Source: an uncultured Siphonobacter sp. (GTDB taxonomy: Bacteria; Bacteroidota; Bacteroidia; Cytophagales; Spirosomataceae). Taken from it: 64,000 nt of DNA. The notes below the pieces were generated by a model. The model searched no databases, was not told the origin of the DNA, and worked only from the letters and a program-made list of their open reading frames with translations. Made by a program: the position numbers and the translations under genes. The DNA is taken from contig CAJYHS010000065.1 in NCBI GenBank assembly GCA_913774715.1, forward strand, positions 1 to 64,000. The letters run 5' to 3'. Below, in pieces: positions 7,750 to 33,925 of the stretch (the first letter of the stretch is position 1; every line of letters starts with the position of its first letter).

Positions 7750-9045
7750 TTACTTCGCGTACTTACTAGAAAACGTGCGATAGAGTTTCTTCTGCTTATC
7801 GTCCAGGTTCAGTGATTTTCCCTGAATATAAGCTTGTTCTACTTTCGCCGTCCGCATGTCCAGAATGTCTCCGGAGGATACGATTAAGGTGGCATGCTTC
7901 CCTTTTTCGAGCGATCCTACAACGTTGTCAATACCTAGAATTTTAGCATTGTTAAGCGTCACCAGCTTCAAAGCTTCTTCCGTCGTCATGCCATGACCTC
8001 CTACGGTTCCCGCTAAAAAAGGCAGGTTACGCGTCCGCCAGTTCAGACCCACATACCCTAAACCTACCGTCAGTCCTTTTTGGGAAAGCAGGTAAGGTAA
8101 CTTGTAAGGTAAATCCGTGTCATCGTCCGTGCGGTTTGGCAGCCGGTGCGTGGTATTCACAATGATTGAAACGTTATTTTCTTTCAGGAAATCCGCTGCC
8201 ATTAAGGACTCTTCCCCACCAATGATAACAACTTTCTTTACACCTTTGGCTTTCGCAAAACGTACCGCTTCAATGATTTCCTTGCCATAATCAGCCGCTA
8301 CGTACAGATTTTTCGTCCCATTGAACAATCCACGCATGGCTTCCAGCTTCATATTCACGGGAGAAGACGCTGGCGTTTGAGCGTAAGCAATCGCATCGCT
8401 AAACAGCTTGTCCAATTCGCGGAACTGTTCCTCTCGACGATCATTTTTGCCGACACTAAAGGATCCCGTTTCGAAATTATATCCCCGGCGGAAGTAACCC
8501 GGCCAGTTTACGTGTACGCCGTCGTCTTTCTTCAGAGCGGCATCTTCCCAGTTCCAGCCGTCCAGTTGCATGACGGATGACATCCCCGACACTACTCCAC
8601 CTACGGGCGTAGCTTGCGTCAATAAAATCCCGTTACCCCGCACGGTCGGAATTACTTCAGAATCTGTGTTATAAGCAATCAGTGCCCGCACGTTGGGGGT
8701 GTAATCGCCCACTTCTTCCTGATCATTCGTGGCCCGAACGGAGGCAATTTCTACGAGACCTAATTGATTGGAAGGAGAGATTAATCCCGGATAGACGTGC
8801 TTTCCAGTGACCGAAATGCTTTGCGTTCCGGCGGGTAAAGTTGGCGTTCCGCTGCCTACGTAGGTAATTTTTCCTTTATCAAAAACGACCGTTCCATTCT
8901 GAATGACTTCGCCCGTTCCCACGTGAATGGTGCCTCCCGTCAGGGCAATGGGAGCCGTTTGTGGCTGGGCCGCAGCTTCGTTCTGAGCCTGAGCCGTCTT
9001 CAGCATCGAGCTGAGTGCCAGTATGGTGAATAGTATTTTTTTCAT
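7750..9045 (-). CDS. Exported amidohydrolase-fold protein, metal ligands largely missing
   Basis: A 431-residue protein with a signal peptide (residues 1-20, ending AQAQ) and the composite beta-sandwich/TIM-barrel outline of imidazolonepropionase-like amidohydrolases: TIHVGTGEVIQNG start, AGTQSISVTGKHVYPGLI, and the terminal GSLEKGKHATLIVSSGD sandwich. The position where active members carry HxH after YPGL reads ISPSNQLG, with no histidine. The usual His-Gly-Asp tail of the barrel reads LGYVGLNWRTRNLP. I infer a non-catalytic partner or scaffold. It follows the 1029-residue amidohydrolase gene on the same strand, and the two probably act together in the periplasm. Confidence 0.8.
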   Translation of the reverse strand: MKKILFTILALSSMLKTAQAQNEAAAQPQTAPIALTGGTIHVGTGEVIQNGTVVFDKGKITYVGSGTPTLPAGTQSISVTGKHVYPGLISPSNQLGLVEIASVRATNDQEEVGDYTPNVRALIAYNTDSEVIPTVRGNGILLTQATPVGGVVSGMSSVMQLDGWNWEDAALKKDDGVHVNWPGYFRRGYNFETGSFSVGKNDRREEQFRELDKLFSDAIAYAQTPASSPVNMKLEAMRGLFNGTKNLYVAADYGKEIIEAVRFAKAKGVKKVVIIGGEESLMAADFLKENNVSIIVNTTHRLPNRTDDDTDLPYKLPYLLSQKGLTVGLGYVGLNWRTRNLPFLAGTVGGHGMTTEEALKLVTLNNAKILGIDNVVGSLEKGKHATLIVSSGDILDMRTAKVEQAYIQGKSLNLDDKQKKLYRTFSSKYAK

Positions 9046-9069
9046 TGAAATATCTTTAGGATCATTTAG

Positions 9070-9210
9070 TTTGAATGGGTTTGAAAAACAGGTTTGAGGA
9101 GTTTTGAAAGATTTTGAGAACGTTTGATGTAAATTCCTCGTACCTAATCAAACCATTTCAAACTTTCAAATCTTATCAAACTGTCTCAGACACTCTCAAA
9201 CTTCGTCAAA
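9070..9210. repeat. Helically phased TTTGA / TCAAA array
   Basis: TTTGA begins at 9070, 9080, 9093, 9103, 9113 and 9123. After a 20-base centre, TCAAA begins at 9148, 9158, 9166, 9176, 9196 and 9206, with TCAGA at 9186. Most steps are exactly 10 bases, one helical turn. The two halves are in opposite orientation, so they form an imperfect inverted repeat. The array fills the gap between the two amidohydrolase genes. Confidence 0.85.
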
Positions 9211-9214
9211 CCAG

Positions 9215-12200
9215 TTAAAATCCGCAGGAACCGTCGCAGTTGAACTGACCGAAGAAACGCATGTGGCCTTCTTCTTCCGACAAACCACCGAGGGTATTAC
9301 AGTGGAAGTGACGGGGACGCTGCATGGCTGGTCGTTGCGTCGTCGCACCGGAAGCTTTGGCCGTCAGTAACTTCTGAATCAGACGATTACGTTCGGTATC
9401 AATTTCCTTACGTAATACTTTGTCTTTTTCCAGATCGAAGTAAATCGCTCCTTCAATGATGGTTTTTTCAGGCTTGGCGTACACCGACAAGGGGTTATTA
9501 TTCCAAAGCACCACGTCGGCATCTTTCCCTACTTTGATACTTCCCATACGGTTATCCAGGTGCATCATTTTTGCGGGGTTCAGGGTTACCATTTTCCAGG
9601 CATCTTCTTCCGAAACACCCCCGTATAATACCGTCTTCGCCGCTTCCTGATTCAGACGACGAGCCATTTCCGCGTCATCGGAGTTAATAGCCGTGTTTAC
9701 GCCTACTTTCGATAACATCGCCGCATTGTAAGGGATCGCGTCTTTTACTTCCATTTTGTACGCCCACCAATCCGAGAACGTCGAGCCGTTGGCTCCGTGC
9801 TGTTTCATTTTGTCGGCTACTTTGTACCCCTCCAGAATGTGCGTAAAGGTGTTAATCGTGAAGCCTAAAGAATCCGCCACTTTCATTAACATATTGATCT
9901 CCGACTGCACGTAGGAGTGACAGGTAATGAAGCGTTTTTTGTTCAGGATTTCCACCAGAGCGTCCAGCTCCAGATCCCGGCGGGGAGCTACCATCGAAGC
10001 TTTCTTCGAAGAACCGTTATAGTCTTTCCACTCTTTCTCGTAAGCTTTCGCACGGATGAAGGCATCCATCATTACCTGCTCCACGCCCATCCGGGTTTGT
10101 GGAAAACGCACGCGGGCGATGTCCCCCCAGTTGGCCTGTTTTACGTTTTCGCCCAAAGCAAATTTGATAAACTGAGCCTCGGGAATCAGTAAGTTATCCG
10201 GCGTTTCCCCCCATTTGAGTTTAATAACCGCCGACTGACCACCGATACAGTTCGCCGAACCGTGTAACAATTGCGAAGAAGTAACCCCTCCCGCCAGCTG
10301 ACGGTAAATATTTACGTCTTCCGAATTCACTACATCACCCATCCGAACCTCGGAAGTAACCGATTGCGTACCTTCGTTTACCGAATATAAGCCAATATGC
10401 GAGTGCTCATCGAAGATGCCAGTAGTCAGGTGTTTGCCGGTTCCGTCGATCACTTTTGCCCCTGAAGGCGTGGAAAGGCTTTTACCTACTTTCGCGATTT
10501 TACCGTTTTGCAATAATACATCCGTGTTCGGTACGATCCCGTCTTTTTCGTTCGTCCAGACCGTCGCATTTTTAATCAGAATGGTTTCGGCTTTAGCTTT
10601 TTCTTCGGTGCCGTAACCAGCGAATGGGAAGATCAACTTACCCATTTCGTAAGGAGCCGCTTTTTTGCTAGAATCTGTCCGGGCACGACCCGCTTGTGGA
10701 GCCGATTTATACGTAGCCAGGAGTGTTAGTGGAGCTCCCGCCGCGTCAAAACCGTCGCCTTTGATGTTCTTTCCGTCGTAATAAGCCGAAATCCGGTTTT
10801 CGCCTTTATCCGCTTTATTCAGTTTGAATGAAAGCGTTAATAAATCGCCCTGACGGGTAACTTTCGGCGTGATTTTCATGGTATCCACCTGAATCTGATA
10901 CGTGGGTTTATCCGCCTTTCCGGTAATATCCAGTTTCAGATTAGAGCGAGAACCTACCGCCAGATCATACGAGCCCCGGAAATCACTGGCATTCATATCC
11001 GTCACGATGTAACGCGTTCCTTTGACCCAGTTTTCAAATAAGGTATTCGATTCGCTGAAAATACTTTCCGAAGAAATCAGGAAGTTGGCTAGCATGCCAG
11101 GCTTCAGACTTCCTACCATGTCTTCAATTTTCATCAACTGAGCCGGAACCGTCGTCAAAGCGGCCAGAGCTGCTTTTTCGTCCAGGCCTGCTGCGATGGC
11201 TTTACGAAGGTTCGCCATGAAATCGGCTTTGCTGCGAAGACCACTCGTGGTGAAGCTAAACGGAATGGATTGTTTCGCCAGTAACCCAGCATTGGCCGGA
11301 GCCATTTCCCAGTGTTTCATATCGGAAAGTGAAACTACGCTGGCATCGAAAGGATCTTCCACATCCAGAGCGGTGGGGTACGTTAAAGGCAGAATCAGGG
11401 ATAAACCCGTAGCCTTAATTTCAGGTAAACGCTGATACTCATCGCCGCTACCTTTGATGATATAGTTGACACCAAATTCCTTACCAATCTTAGCCGTACG
11501 TAATACGCCCAACTTGTCGGTTACTTCAAACACCTGAGGTAAGGACTGATTCTGATTGAAAGCTTCCAGCGAAAGGTTGGTTTCCGTGCGACCTTTCACG
11601 CCTTTATACCACTGAGCATCGTAATACGTCTGACGAACCAGAGCTACCGAACCCATGAGTGAATTAGGATAATCCTGAGTAGAGCTGCCTTTGGAATAGG
11701 AATAATGAGCCGAAACATTCGACTTCAGGAGAGCTTCCTGATCTTTCCCATCCAGAAGAGCTACCAGAGCCGAAGTTCCACGAACAATCCCATCCTGCGA
11801 GTGGGTTACCGCTGAGCCGAAGCCGATGTTCCGTAACTCCGCTGCTTCTTTCGCATTACCACTGAACATTTCAGCGGCTTTCACTTCGGGTAACACAGCC
11901 TGGTTCCAGCCGTAAGCCCCCTTTTTCTTGGATTCCATCTGCGGCGTTCCGCGACCCATGCGAGCTTCCCTCTTTACTTCGGGCATACCATAAGCGGCGT
12001 AAACTTCCACAAACGAAGGATAAATCCGCTTGCCTTTCAGGTCGATTACCTGCGTTCCCGCAGGAATTTTTACGCTTTTTCCAACCGCCTCAATCAGACC
12101 ACCCTGAATTAATAGCGTGGCTCCTTCGAGCATGGTTTGGGCGTCGGTAACAATAGTGGCATTAGTAAAAGCTACCCGACCGGGCCGCTCATCCTGCACG

Positions 12201-12286
12201 CCGTTCGTGGGGAACGTCGGCGTTTGGGCCATGGCCTGCATTCCTGATAGAACGAGGCACAGCCAGAAGAGTAATCGTTTCTTCAT
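9215..12286 (-). CDS. Exported double-barrel amidohydrolase (1023 aa)
   Basis: From the ATG at 12286 the protein starts with a clear signal peptide (MKKRLLFWLCLVLSG, cleavage near QAMAQ). The ATG at 12304 would only add six residues. Two amidohydrolase modules are in tandem. The N-terminal barrel (about 30-430) has YPSFVEVYAAYG where active enzymes have HxH, so it looks inactive. A linker beta domain follows. The C-terminal barrel (about 570-985) keeps DEHSHIG (HxH), CHSYVQSE, FTHILEGY and NSDDAEM, the expected binuclear metal ligands. A 40-residue tail is rich in His, Cys and Phe. It probably hydrolyses a cyclic amide or dipeptide bond in the periplasm. The downstream gene encodes a one-barrel relative. 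Confidence 0.85.
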   Translation of the reverse strand: MKKRLLFWLCLVLSGMQAMAQTPTFPTNGVQDERPGRVAFTNATIVTDAQTMLEGATLLIQGGLIEAVGKSVKIPAGTQVIDLKGKRIYPSFVEVYAAYGMPEVKREARMGRGTPQMESKKKGAYGWNQAVLPEVKAAEMFSGNAKEAAELRNIGFGSAVTHSQDGIVRGTSALVALLDGKDQEALLKSNVSAHYSYSKGSSTQDYPNSLMGSVALVRQTYYDAQWYKGVKGRTETNLSLEAFNQNQSLPQVFEVTDKLGVLRTAKIGKEFGVNYIIKGSGDEYQRLPEIKATGLSLILPLTYPTALDVEDPFDASVVSLSDMKHWEMAPANAGLLAKQSIPFSFTTSGLRSKADFMANLRKAIAAGLDEKAALAALTTVPAQLMKIEDMVGSLKPGMLANFLISSESIFSESNTLFENWVKGTRYIVTDMNASDFRGSYDLAVGSRSNLKLDITGKADKPTYQIQVDTMKITPKVTRQGDLLTLSFKLNKADKGENRISAYYDGKNIKGDGFDAAGAPLTLLATYKSAPQAGRARTDSSKKAAPYEMGKLIFPFAGYGTEEKAKAETILIKNATVWTNEKDGIVPNTDVLLQNGKIAKVGKSLSTPSGAKVIDGTGKHLTTGIFDEHSHIGLYSVNEGTQSVTSEVRMGDVVNSEDVNIYRQLAGGVTSSQLLHGSANCIGGQSAVIKLKWGETPDNLLIPEAQFIKFALGENVKQANWGDIARVRFPQTRMGVEQVMMDAFIRAKAYEKEWKDYNGSSKKASMVAPRRDLELDALVEILNKKRFITCHSYVQSEINMLMKVADSLGFTINTFTHILEGYKVADKMKQHGANGSTFSDWWAYKMEVKDAIPYNAAMLSKVGVNTAINSDDAEMARRLNQEAAKTVLYGGVSEEDAWKMVTLNPAKMMHLDNRMGSIKVGKDADVVLWNNNPLSVYAKPEKTIIEGAIYFDLEKDKVLRKEIDTERNRLIQKLLTAKASGATTQRPAMQRPRHFHCNTLGGLSEEEGHMRFFGQFNCDGSCGF

Positions 12287-12495
12287 GAAGAGATGAAGTA
12301 TCAATGTGGAAAATATAGGAAGTGAAAATCAAAGATAACCTTCCTATAGACAAGTCAGAAGAAACTTCAGTTAACCCAACGACGAGTAAAAGAAAAGTTG
12401 CGACGATGACCCATAGTCATTCTTTTTGTACTGTTTTCTCTGCGAAAAACAAAATCATTCTCTATTTAAGAGACAGACCTAGGGCACTGAAAAAT

Positions 12496-12611
12496 GTAGA
12501 GACGCGACTTCATTGCGTCTAGCCGGGGAATGCAACTCATTTGAAAGGTAACTTAGACCGTGGCGAACGGGAAACCGCCTCTACCCAGACGCGATAAAAT
12601 CGCGTCTCTAC
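12496..12611. repeat. 116-bp noncoding repeat element with 12-bp terminal inverted repeats
   Basis: The ends GTAGAGACGCGA (12496-12507) and TCGCGTCTCTAC (12600-12611) are perfect inverted repeats. The right part also contains a hairpin, AGACGCGAT-AAA-ATCGCGTCT (12587-12607). Related GACGCGAT palindromes lie at 31527-31560 and 44752-44786. The element has no ORF and looks like a small MITE- or REP-type repeat. It occupies most of the 339-base gap 12287-12625; the rest of the gap shows nothing recognisable. Confidence 0.75.
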
Positions 12612-23655: not shown

Positions 23656-23661
23656 GGGATT

Positions 23662-23783
23662 CAGTTTGCCGTTTTCGGTTGACAGTTTTCAGTGAATTTT
23701 GAATGATCGAATTTTGATTCATTGTCCTGACCATAACTCAGGCCACGTTGAGCAACCCACTGAAAACGGTAAACCGACAACTG
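23662..23783. repeat. Intergenic inverted repeat built of TTTTCAGT words
   Basis: The left arm (23662-23694) ends GACAGTTTTCAGTG. The right arm starts CACTGAAAACGG (23758) and runs to 23783. The outer ends also match as CAGTT/AACTG. The centre is unrelated sequence. It fills the gap between the LptF/LptG-like and EamA genes and shares its words with 1-90 and 33764-33915. Confidence 0.7.
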
Positions 23784-23787
23784 ACCA

Positions 23788-33757: not shown

Positions 33758-33763
33758 TTTATT

Positions 33764-33915
33764 AGTTTTCTGTTGGCAGTTTTCTGTTTTCAGTTGGTCT
33801 ACGCAACTTGATCAGGAAACTGATAACTAATTCTCAATTATAGACTCTGACAGTTTCTGTTTGTGGAACACTAGCTTCCCTTTCAGCCCAAACTGAAAAC
33901 TGCAAACAGAAAACT
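33764..33915. repeat. Intergenic inverted repeat of CAGTTTTC/CTGTT words
   Basis: The 21-mer at 33764-33784 (AGTTTTCTGTTGGCAGTTTT plus C) and the reverse complement of 33895-33915 differ at one base. Additional TTTTCAGTT words lie inside each arm. About 110 bases of unrelated sequence separate the arms. The repeat fills the eda-kdgK gap. Confidence 0.75.
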
Positions 33916-33925
33916 GACTACTAAC

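What the first reader, a model, noticed from the sequence alone, without database searches (positions are those of the whole stretch)
9070..9210. Helically phased TTTGA array converging on a TCAAA array
Thirteen five-base words occur at almost exact 10-base steps: six TTTGA, then six TCAAA and one TCAGA in the reverse sense. The sequence between the words is not conserved, so this is neither an ordinary tandem repeat nor a simple hairpin. One turn per step puts every word on the same face of the helix, as expected for a multimeric DNA-binding protein or a bending element. Alternatively the RNA could fold into a long bulged stem between the two amidohydrolase genes. TTTG is also the core of Bacteroidota promoter elements.
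Basis: seen in the sequence. Interest (0 to 1): 0.62.

Follow-up and report, generated by a model that had tools for sequence, protein, structure and literature searches.

The report
Word-built hairpins between bacterial genes
A short stretch between two bacterial genes is one of a scattered family of elements in which the word GTTTGA is repeated about every ten bases and then mirrored, so that the RNA copied from it could fold into a long hairpin just after the end of a gene; I found no description of this family, and its job is not yet known.

Summary
At 9070-9210, six TTTGA words are mirrored by six TCAAA and one TCAGA, mostly at 10-base steps, far beyond chance. It is one of a dispersed family in Siphonobacter. 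Arrays found by one arm alone have the mirror words almost only on the inner side (86 against 2), so the element is an inverted array.

Two-armed elements sit next to stop codons, mostly between tandem genes and rarely between divergent ones. Spacers tend to pair as well, but in the window's own element the words carry the pairing. Against the nearest relative the gap shows 12 substitutions, none in a word. S. aquaeclarae lacks the element here; its two genes are 24 bases apart.

Helical phasing is weakened: steps are 10.0, not 10.5, and coherence fades after about three steps. The same arrays occur in one unrelated genus of the order, where most are one-armed.

Best reading: an intercistronic or 3'-end mRNA hairpin built from interchangeable words, acting like REP elements (mRNA protection or insulation) but not a REP; the genome has no RAYT match. 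Function is inferred, not shown.

The parts
9070..9127 (+). left arm: six TTTGA words (9070, 9080, 9093, 9103, 9113, 9123); in the mRNA (minus strand) this is the 3' arm
   Evidence: mirrored words and folding
9128..9147 (.). centre (loop) between the two arms, 20 bases
9148..9210 (-). right arm: six TCAAA words and one TCAGA (9186), i.e. TTTGA on the minus strand; 5' arm in the mRNA
   Evidence: words unchanged in G003
9211..9214 (-). four bases between the stop codon (9215-9217) of the upstream gene and the first word
9046..9069 (-). 24-base leader between the element and the start codon (9045) of the downstream gene; S. aquaeclarae has only 24 bases between the same two genes
9215..12304 (-). 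upstream gene of the pair, 1029-aa two-part amidohydrolase
   Evidence: ORF; Pfam Amidohydro_1, two stretches
7750..9045 (-). downstream gene of the pair, 431-aa amidohydrolase with a signal-peptide-like start (by eye)
   Evidence: ORF; Pfam; nearest relatives match from residue 1

Best explanation
A dispersed intergenic inverted array. Each arm is a chain of GTTTGA words (unit GTTTGA-N4, about 10 bases, poor in C), and the two arms face each other. Shown: the convergent layout, the position next to stop codons, the words kept while spacers change, the potential to fold, and the absence from S. aquaeclarae and from nearly all other genera sampled. Inferred: the working form is the mRNA, which folds after the stop codon into a long hairpin of short helices (GUUUGA with UCAAAC) separated by internal loops. 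Because all words are alike, the arms can pair in several registers and the fold survives small insertions and deletions. The hairpin then works like a REP element: it shields the 3' end of the upstream message from 3' exonucleases and insulates the two cistrons of an operon.
For: Convergent layout: from arrays chosen by one arm only, TCAAAC words downstream against upstream are 86: 2 in the own genome (33 arrays) and 17: 0 in the second genus (26 arrays). Arm pairing: 35 elements fold better than copies with only the spacers shuffled (words and arm composition kept), mean z -2.7 and -3.2 on the two strands, 30 of 35 with z < -1 on the + strand. The 23 two-armed own arrays pair with what follows (mean z -3.48, 18 of 23 below -2) but not with what precedes (-0.24, 4 of 23). 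Position: of 35 elements, 25 tandem, 6 convergent, 0 divergent, 4 inside a gene or unknown; own gaps of 80 bases or more are 140 / 30 / 57. Of 39 flanking gene 3' ends 29 lie within 15 bases, median 6; flanking 5' ends lie further off (median 50 by a start caller that sets starts too far in). Word constraint: own against G003 at this locus, 12 substitutions, none in an exact word; at the three own-G003 loci, words 281 of 286 and spacers 427 of 532 identical, counted in both directions. The fold persists while the sequence turns over: -41.2, -42.7 and -68.3 kcal/mol in own, G002 and G001, for stretches of 172, 163 and 209 bases.
Against: For the window's own element the arms pair no better with each other than with arms of other elements (rank 19 of 43; the comparison arms include its own G003 orthologue), and the gain over spacer shuffling is small (z -1.03 and -0.26), so its fold rests on the words. 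Over all tested elements only 9 of 31 are in the best 5%, mean z -0.92 (4 of 35 elements were dropped for short arms). One-armed arrays exist (10 of 33 in the own genome; 20 of 26 in the second genus), and those tested (9 and 19) show on average no pairing with the next 200 bases. Word conservation is not seen everywhere: at the G003-G002 locus L276 words and spacers are equally conserved (0.73 and 0.72). No asymmetry between 5' and 3' arms that would show G-U pairs in RNA was found (20 against 17 variant words, underpowered). Of 12 changes between own and G003, 3 break a pair, 2 keep one, 7 are unpaired in the own fold, and none is compensated. No RNA data were available.
Confidence: 0.5

Rival explanations
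1. The words are DNA sites: a protein binds GTTTGA units head to tail, ten bases apart, and the mirrored arms make a two-sided block at gene ends (nucleoid organisation, roadblock to polymerase, or relief of supercoils).
For: Words are kept and spacers are free. One-armed arrays without a pairing partner exist. The same word and step recur in an unrelated genus, which a shared binding protein would explain.
Against: Spacers of most two-armed elements are complementary beyond the words, which double-stranded sites do not need. The step is 10.0, not 10.5, and phase is lost after about three steps. No candidate protein was identified.
Confidence: 0.25
2. A mutational product with little function: repeats grow by slippage, and template switching inside quasi-palindromes copies one arm into the other, so that mirrored arrays appear and decay in gaps that tolerate them.
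For: Arrays change fast in length and spacers between species. Near-perfect hairpins and pure tandem runs occur beside irregular ones. At one place G003 carries a GTTTTGA hairpin where own and G002 carry a GTTTTCA one.
Against: Words are conserved while spacers change at most loci compared. Adjacent spacers are hardly more alike than random ones (37.5% against 32.4%, 22 pairs), so there is no clear sign of unit duplication. It does not predict the rarity in divergent gaps.
Confidence: 0.15
3. A transcription terminator, either intrinsic or two-way Rho-dependent (the arm transcribed last is poor in G and carries UC steps about every ten bases; Rho preferences recalled, not from a call).
For: Position after stop codons, and a C-poor arm followed by a G-poor arm on either strand.
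Against: No terminator-like stem with a T run lies inside 9070-9210; the two matches in 8900-9400 lie outside it. Only 24 bases separate the element from the next start codon, which leaves little room for a new promoter. A fold would hide the Rho site.
Confidence: 0.1

Closest known systems
REP / BIME / REPIN elements
   Same: Dispersed, intergenic, palindromic, close to gene 3' ends or between cistrons. REP hairpins in RNA are reported to act as barriers to degradation (PMC12306157, passages read).
   Different: REPs are described as conserved sequences (REPINs carry invariant 16-mers, PMC3116915, passages read). Here only a 6-base word is conserved, repeated several times per arm with free spacers. 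The own genome has no Y1 transposase match, whereas REPINs are tied to RAYTs.
TAACTGA and other heptamer arrays (Beggiatoaceae, Cyanobacteria, some Bacteroidetes)
   Same: Short words repeated in intergenic regions, patchy across distant lineages, function unknown (PMC4679880, abstract and section 10 read).
   Different: Those are direct repeats of a whole 7-base unit, in the Maribeggiatoa genome mostly just upstream of start codons, with one indirect repeat reported. The present arrays are inverted, have a 10-base step with free spacers, and follow stop codons.
Period-7 GTT(T/G)NNN arrays of the same genome
   Same: GTT-led units, intergenic (27 of 27), and where a mirrored run was found it was convergent (10 of 27 convergent, 0 divergent).
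   Different: Step 7 with units such as GTTTTCA and GTTGTCA; also found between divergent genes (7 of 24 with known context); the CAGTTTN form is present in 54 of 390 genomes of the order.
Head-to-tail operators of OmpR/PhoB-type regulators (recalled, not from a call)
   Same: Six-base direct repeats about one turn apart.
   Different: Those are promoter sites of a few units; these are mirrored arrays after stop codons at many places.

Membership tests
REP / REPIN | conserved palindromic core sequence shared by the copies | tested here: not met
   Copies share only GTTTGA; other arm positions are variable apart from being C-poor.
REP / REPIN | partner RAYT (Y1 transposase) in the genome | tested here: not met
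   PF01797: 0 matches in G000 and in G001; 3, 5 and 3 in G002, G003 and G004; 1 in S. aquaeclarae G005, which has almost no arrays; 2, 8 and 3 in G076, G156 and G186.
REP / REPIN | extragenic, near gene 3' ends, able to form a hairpin | tested here: met
   (two-armed elements; one-armed arrays do not meet it)
REP / REPIN | GTAG/CGTC-type tag at the foot of the hairpin | not tested
   Known from the listing of PMC3733652 only.
Intrinsic (Rho-independent) terminator | GC-rich stem followed by a T run | tested here: not met
   No match inside 9070-9210; the two matches in 8900-9400 lie outside it.
Known Rfam RNA family | match above the gathering score | tested here: not met
   0 matches in the whole window.
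TAACTGA-type heptamer arrays | direct repeats of a complete heptamer | tested here: not met
   Step 10 and unlike spacers.
Helically phased operator array | phase kept at about 10.5 bases over many words | tested here: not met
   Peaks at 10, 20, 30 with side peaks at 18, 28, 38; no clear order beyond about 45.

The most novel reading that the evidence does not exclude
GTTTGA decamer arrays are the recognition code of an unknown trans-acting factor (RNA- or DNA-binding, or an enzyme that writes or corrects the arrays) that was acquired separately by one Siphonobacter clade and by one unrelated genus of the order. It seeds and maintains mirrored word arrays at gene ends without any fixed repeat sequence.
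Probability: 0.15. Interest if true: 0.78.

Novelty: new variant of a known kind. Interest (0 to 1): 0.5.

Why it matters
An element defined only by a 6-base word, a step and a mirror is easily missed by tools that look for conserved repeats: the repeat finder used here reported nothing at this place. If the reading holds, bacteria can build long, mutation-tolerant hairpins at gene ends from interchangeable words, and can do so anew in a single clade within a genus. The clean comparison (five Siphonobacter genomes with the element at this locus, S. aquaeclarae with a 24-base gap between the same two genes) makes the old question of what intercistronic hairpins do for an operon directly testable.

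Tried and rejected
RAYT-driven REP spread: rejected for the own genome, which has no Y1 transposase match. Rfam families: none. Unit duplication as the source of arrays: adjacent spacers are not clearly more alike. Strand asymmetry of word variants as a test of RNA against DNA: too few cases. Own-against-cross arm pairing as proof of a selected fold: only partly positive. A general excess of TTTGA in all gaps of the sampled contigs: not seen. Literature: six searches showed no description of these arrays among the papers listed from the held open-access library; 'Siphonobacter' with 'repeat' and 'intergenic' gave 0 papers. Papers: PMC4679880, abstract and section 10 read; PMC12306157 and PMC3116915, passages only; PMC3733652, listing only.

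Limits of the counts: the 456,623-base sample of the own genome (plus the window) was drawn partly from contigs that already had hits, so no copy number is extrapolated. Genes were called by home-made scripts; the codon-score one often sets starts too far in (for this locus 63 instead of 24 bases to the downstream gene), so 5' distances are overestimates. The 35 elements include orthologues from four genomes (own 13, G003 10, G002 9, G001 3) and many loci picked with a two-arm pattern; the unbiased orientation test is that. Two of the 35 lie inside genes and are probably chance. One search counts several loci more than once; only the three own-G003 loci and one contrary locus are quoted. Searches count arms, so one element can count twice. 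In some searches one locus of another genome (L375, G769) was wrongly put among the own loci; one search repeats the own-genome counts without it, and its numbers are the ones used (33 arrays instead of 34; 86: 2 unchanged).

Full report
What is there. The gap 9046-9214 lies between two amidohydrolase genes on the minus strand. From the stop codon of the upstream gene (9215-9217) there are four bases, then the array (9210 down to 9070), then 24 bases, then the start codon of the downstream gene at 9045. Chance is excluded by Markov copies, shuffles and a scan of all pentamers.

It is a family. The window is part of a Siphonobacter genome (named relatives; same-genus handles G001-G005; that G005 is S. 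aquaeclarae is inferred from matching coordinates and an identical gap in L030 and L058). A pattern of four TTTGA words at 10-base steps with up to two mismatches gives 20 matches in the own genome against 2 for the reversed pattern; 4 of the 20 are in this gap and 16 are at 13 other places. A two-arm pattern gives 44 against 4 in the own genome, 43 against 4 in G003 and 58 against 4 in G002 (several matches can come from one element, and some matches are probably chance). With a looser one-arm pattern S. aquaeclarae (G005) has 5 matches and the other five genomes 64 to 234; the reversed control of that pattern is as high or higher (50 to 347; 162 in G005), at least partly because tandem heptamer runs match it, so this pattern alone proves little.

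Layout. Arrays selected by one arm alone have TCAAAC words downstream and not upstream: 86 against 2 in 33 own arrays. Over 35 elements the unit is G-TTTGA-N4, G in 83% just before the word, and C is rare in the arm (2-17% per spacer position). Pair distances peak at exactly 10, 20 and 30 with side peaks at 18, 28 and 38, and the order is gone by about 45, which speaks against one face of the DNA helix over a whole arm.

Folding. The window array folds on either strand. In 35 elements the fold is better than after shuffling only the spacers inside each arm (mean z -2.7 and -3.2), so spacers tend to pair too. The window element is one of the weaker cases (z -1.03 and -0.26), and its arms pair no better with each other than with arms of other elements (rank 19 of 43). 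In its mRNA fold 30 of 53 pairs are word with word and 23 spacer with spacer. My reading is that elements start as near-perfect mirrored repeats (examples) and drift, while the words keep the arms able to pair; the order of events is inference.

Place. Of 35 elements 25 lie between tandem genes, 6 between convergent genes, none between divergent genes, and 4 are inside genes or unclear; own gaps of at least 80 bases are 140, 30 and 57. By arms in the own genome, of 23 two-armed arrays 16 are tandem, 4 convergent, 1 divergent and 2 unknown, while the 10 one-armed ones are 3 tandem, 1 convergent, 4 divergent, 1 inside a gene and 1 unknown. Of 39 flanking gene 3' ends, 29 lie within 15 bases of the element.

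Evolution. At this locus the array is present in own, G003, G002, G001 and G004 and absent from S. aquaeclarae, where the two genes are 24 bases apart, the same length as the leader that follows the element here. This suggests an insertion after the split from S. aquaeclarae; a loss there is not excluded. Own against G003: 12 substitutions in the gap, none in an exact word. At the three own-G003 loci words are 281 of 286 and spacers 427 of 532 identical, counted in both directions; at one G003-G002 locus (L276) there is no difference (0.73 and 0.72). With G002 and G001 length and spacers differ widely, but words and a strong fold remain. Aligners may favour words, so the nearly gap-free own-G003 alignment is the one to trust.

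Spread. With GTTTGA-N4 three times and one mismatch, 21 of 390 genomes of the order match. Only the two Siphonobacter genomes in that sample (own 31 against 4 controls, G001 14 against 0) and genus g67 of another family (G076 15 against 1, G156 16 against 1, G186 17 against 0) have more than three matches. Among 395 genomes of the phylum, 11 match and only the own genome has more than two (g67 was not in that sample). In g67 the step is again 10, and mirrored words, where present, are convergent (17 against 0), but most arrays there are one-armed (20 of 26) and the 19 tested show on average no pairing with the next 200 bases. This patchiness fits separate acquisition of something that uses the word, or separate evolution; it cannot be decided here.

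What it does. The place next to stop codons and between genes that look like operon partners points to the transcript. REP hairpins in RNA are reported to act as a barrier to degradation (PMC12306157, passages). I therefore favour an mRNA barrier and insulator built from interchangeable words (0.5), ahead of a DNA-binding array (0.25), a mutational product (0.15) and a terminator (0.1). It works like a REP but is not one: no fixed core sequence, no RAYT match in the genome. No RNA, binding or genetic data were available, so function is inference throughout.

Noticed in passing
window about 23656-23787 and 33758-33925: Mirrored period-7 arrays of GTTTNNN-like units (GTTTTCA, GTTTTCT, GTTGACA and the like) between tandem genes; 27 arrays of four or more GTT(T/G)NNN units in the 456-kb own sample, none inside a called gene; CAGTTTN arrays in 54 of 390 genomes of the order.
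   Followed up: partly
window about 12496-12611: Inverted repeat GTAGAGACGCGACTTCATTGCGTCT ... AGACGCGATAAAATCGCGTCTCTAC; similar ones at C65 about 71.4 kb and C86 about 51.2 kb of the same genome: a separate dispersed hairpin family.
   Followed up: no
L206 (G002:C10 about 31388), L223 (G002:C6 about 28544 and 33410): Runs of GTTTTGA heptamers preceded by the same GC-rich piece GCGGCCGCCGCTGCGG at three places.
   Followed up: no
L217 (G001:C1:1887965-1888026): Eight copies of TCAAACAT in tandem facing a TTTGA array about 160 bases away: looks like a recent expansion inside one arm.
   Followed up: no
G003:C2 about 537330 (locus set): At one gene end G003 has a near-perfect GTTTTGA/GTTTAGG hairpin where own and G002 have a different hairpin of GTTTTCA-like units: one word type in place of another at the same site.
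   Followed up: partly
L059, L063, L064 upstream of the match: In other Cytophagales genera the gap between the same two genes holds other repeat-like or mirrored sequences (GGGACGAATAGCATTCGTCC-like; CTCTGCG-like) (by eye).
   Followed up: no
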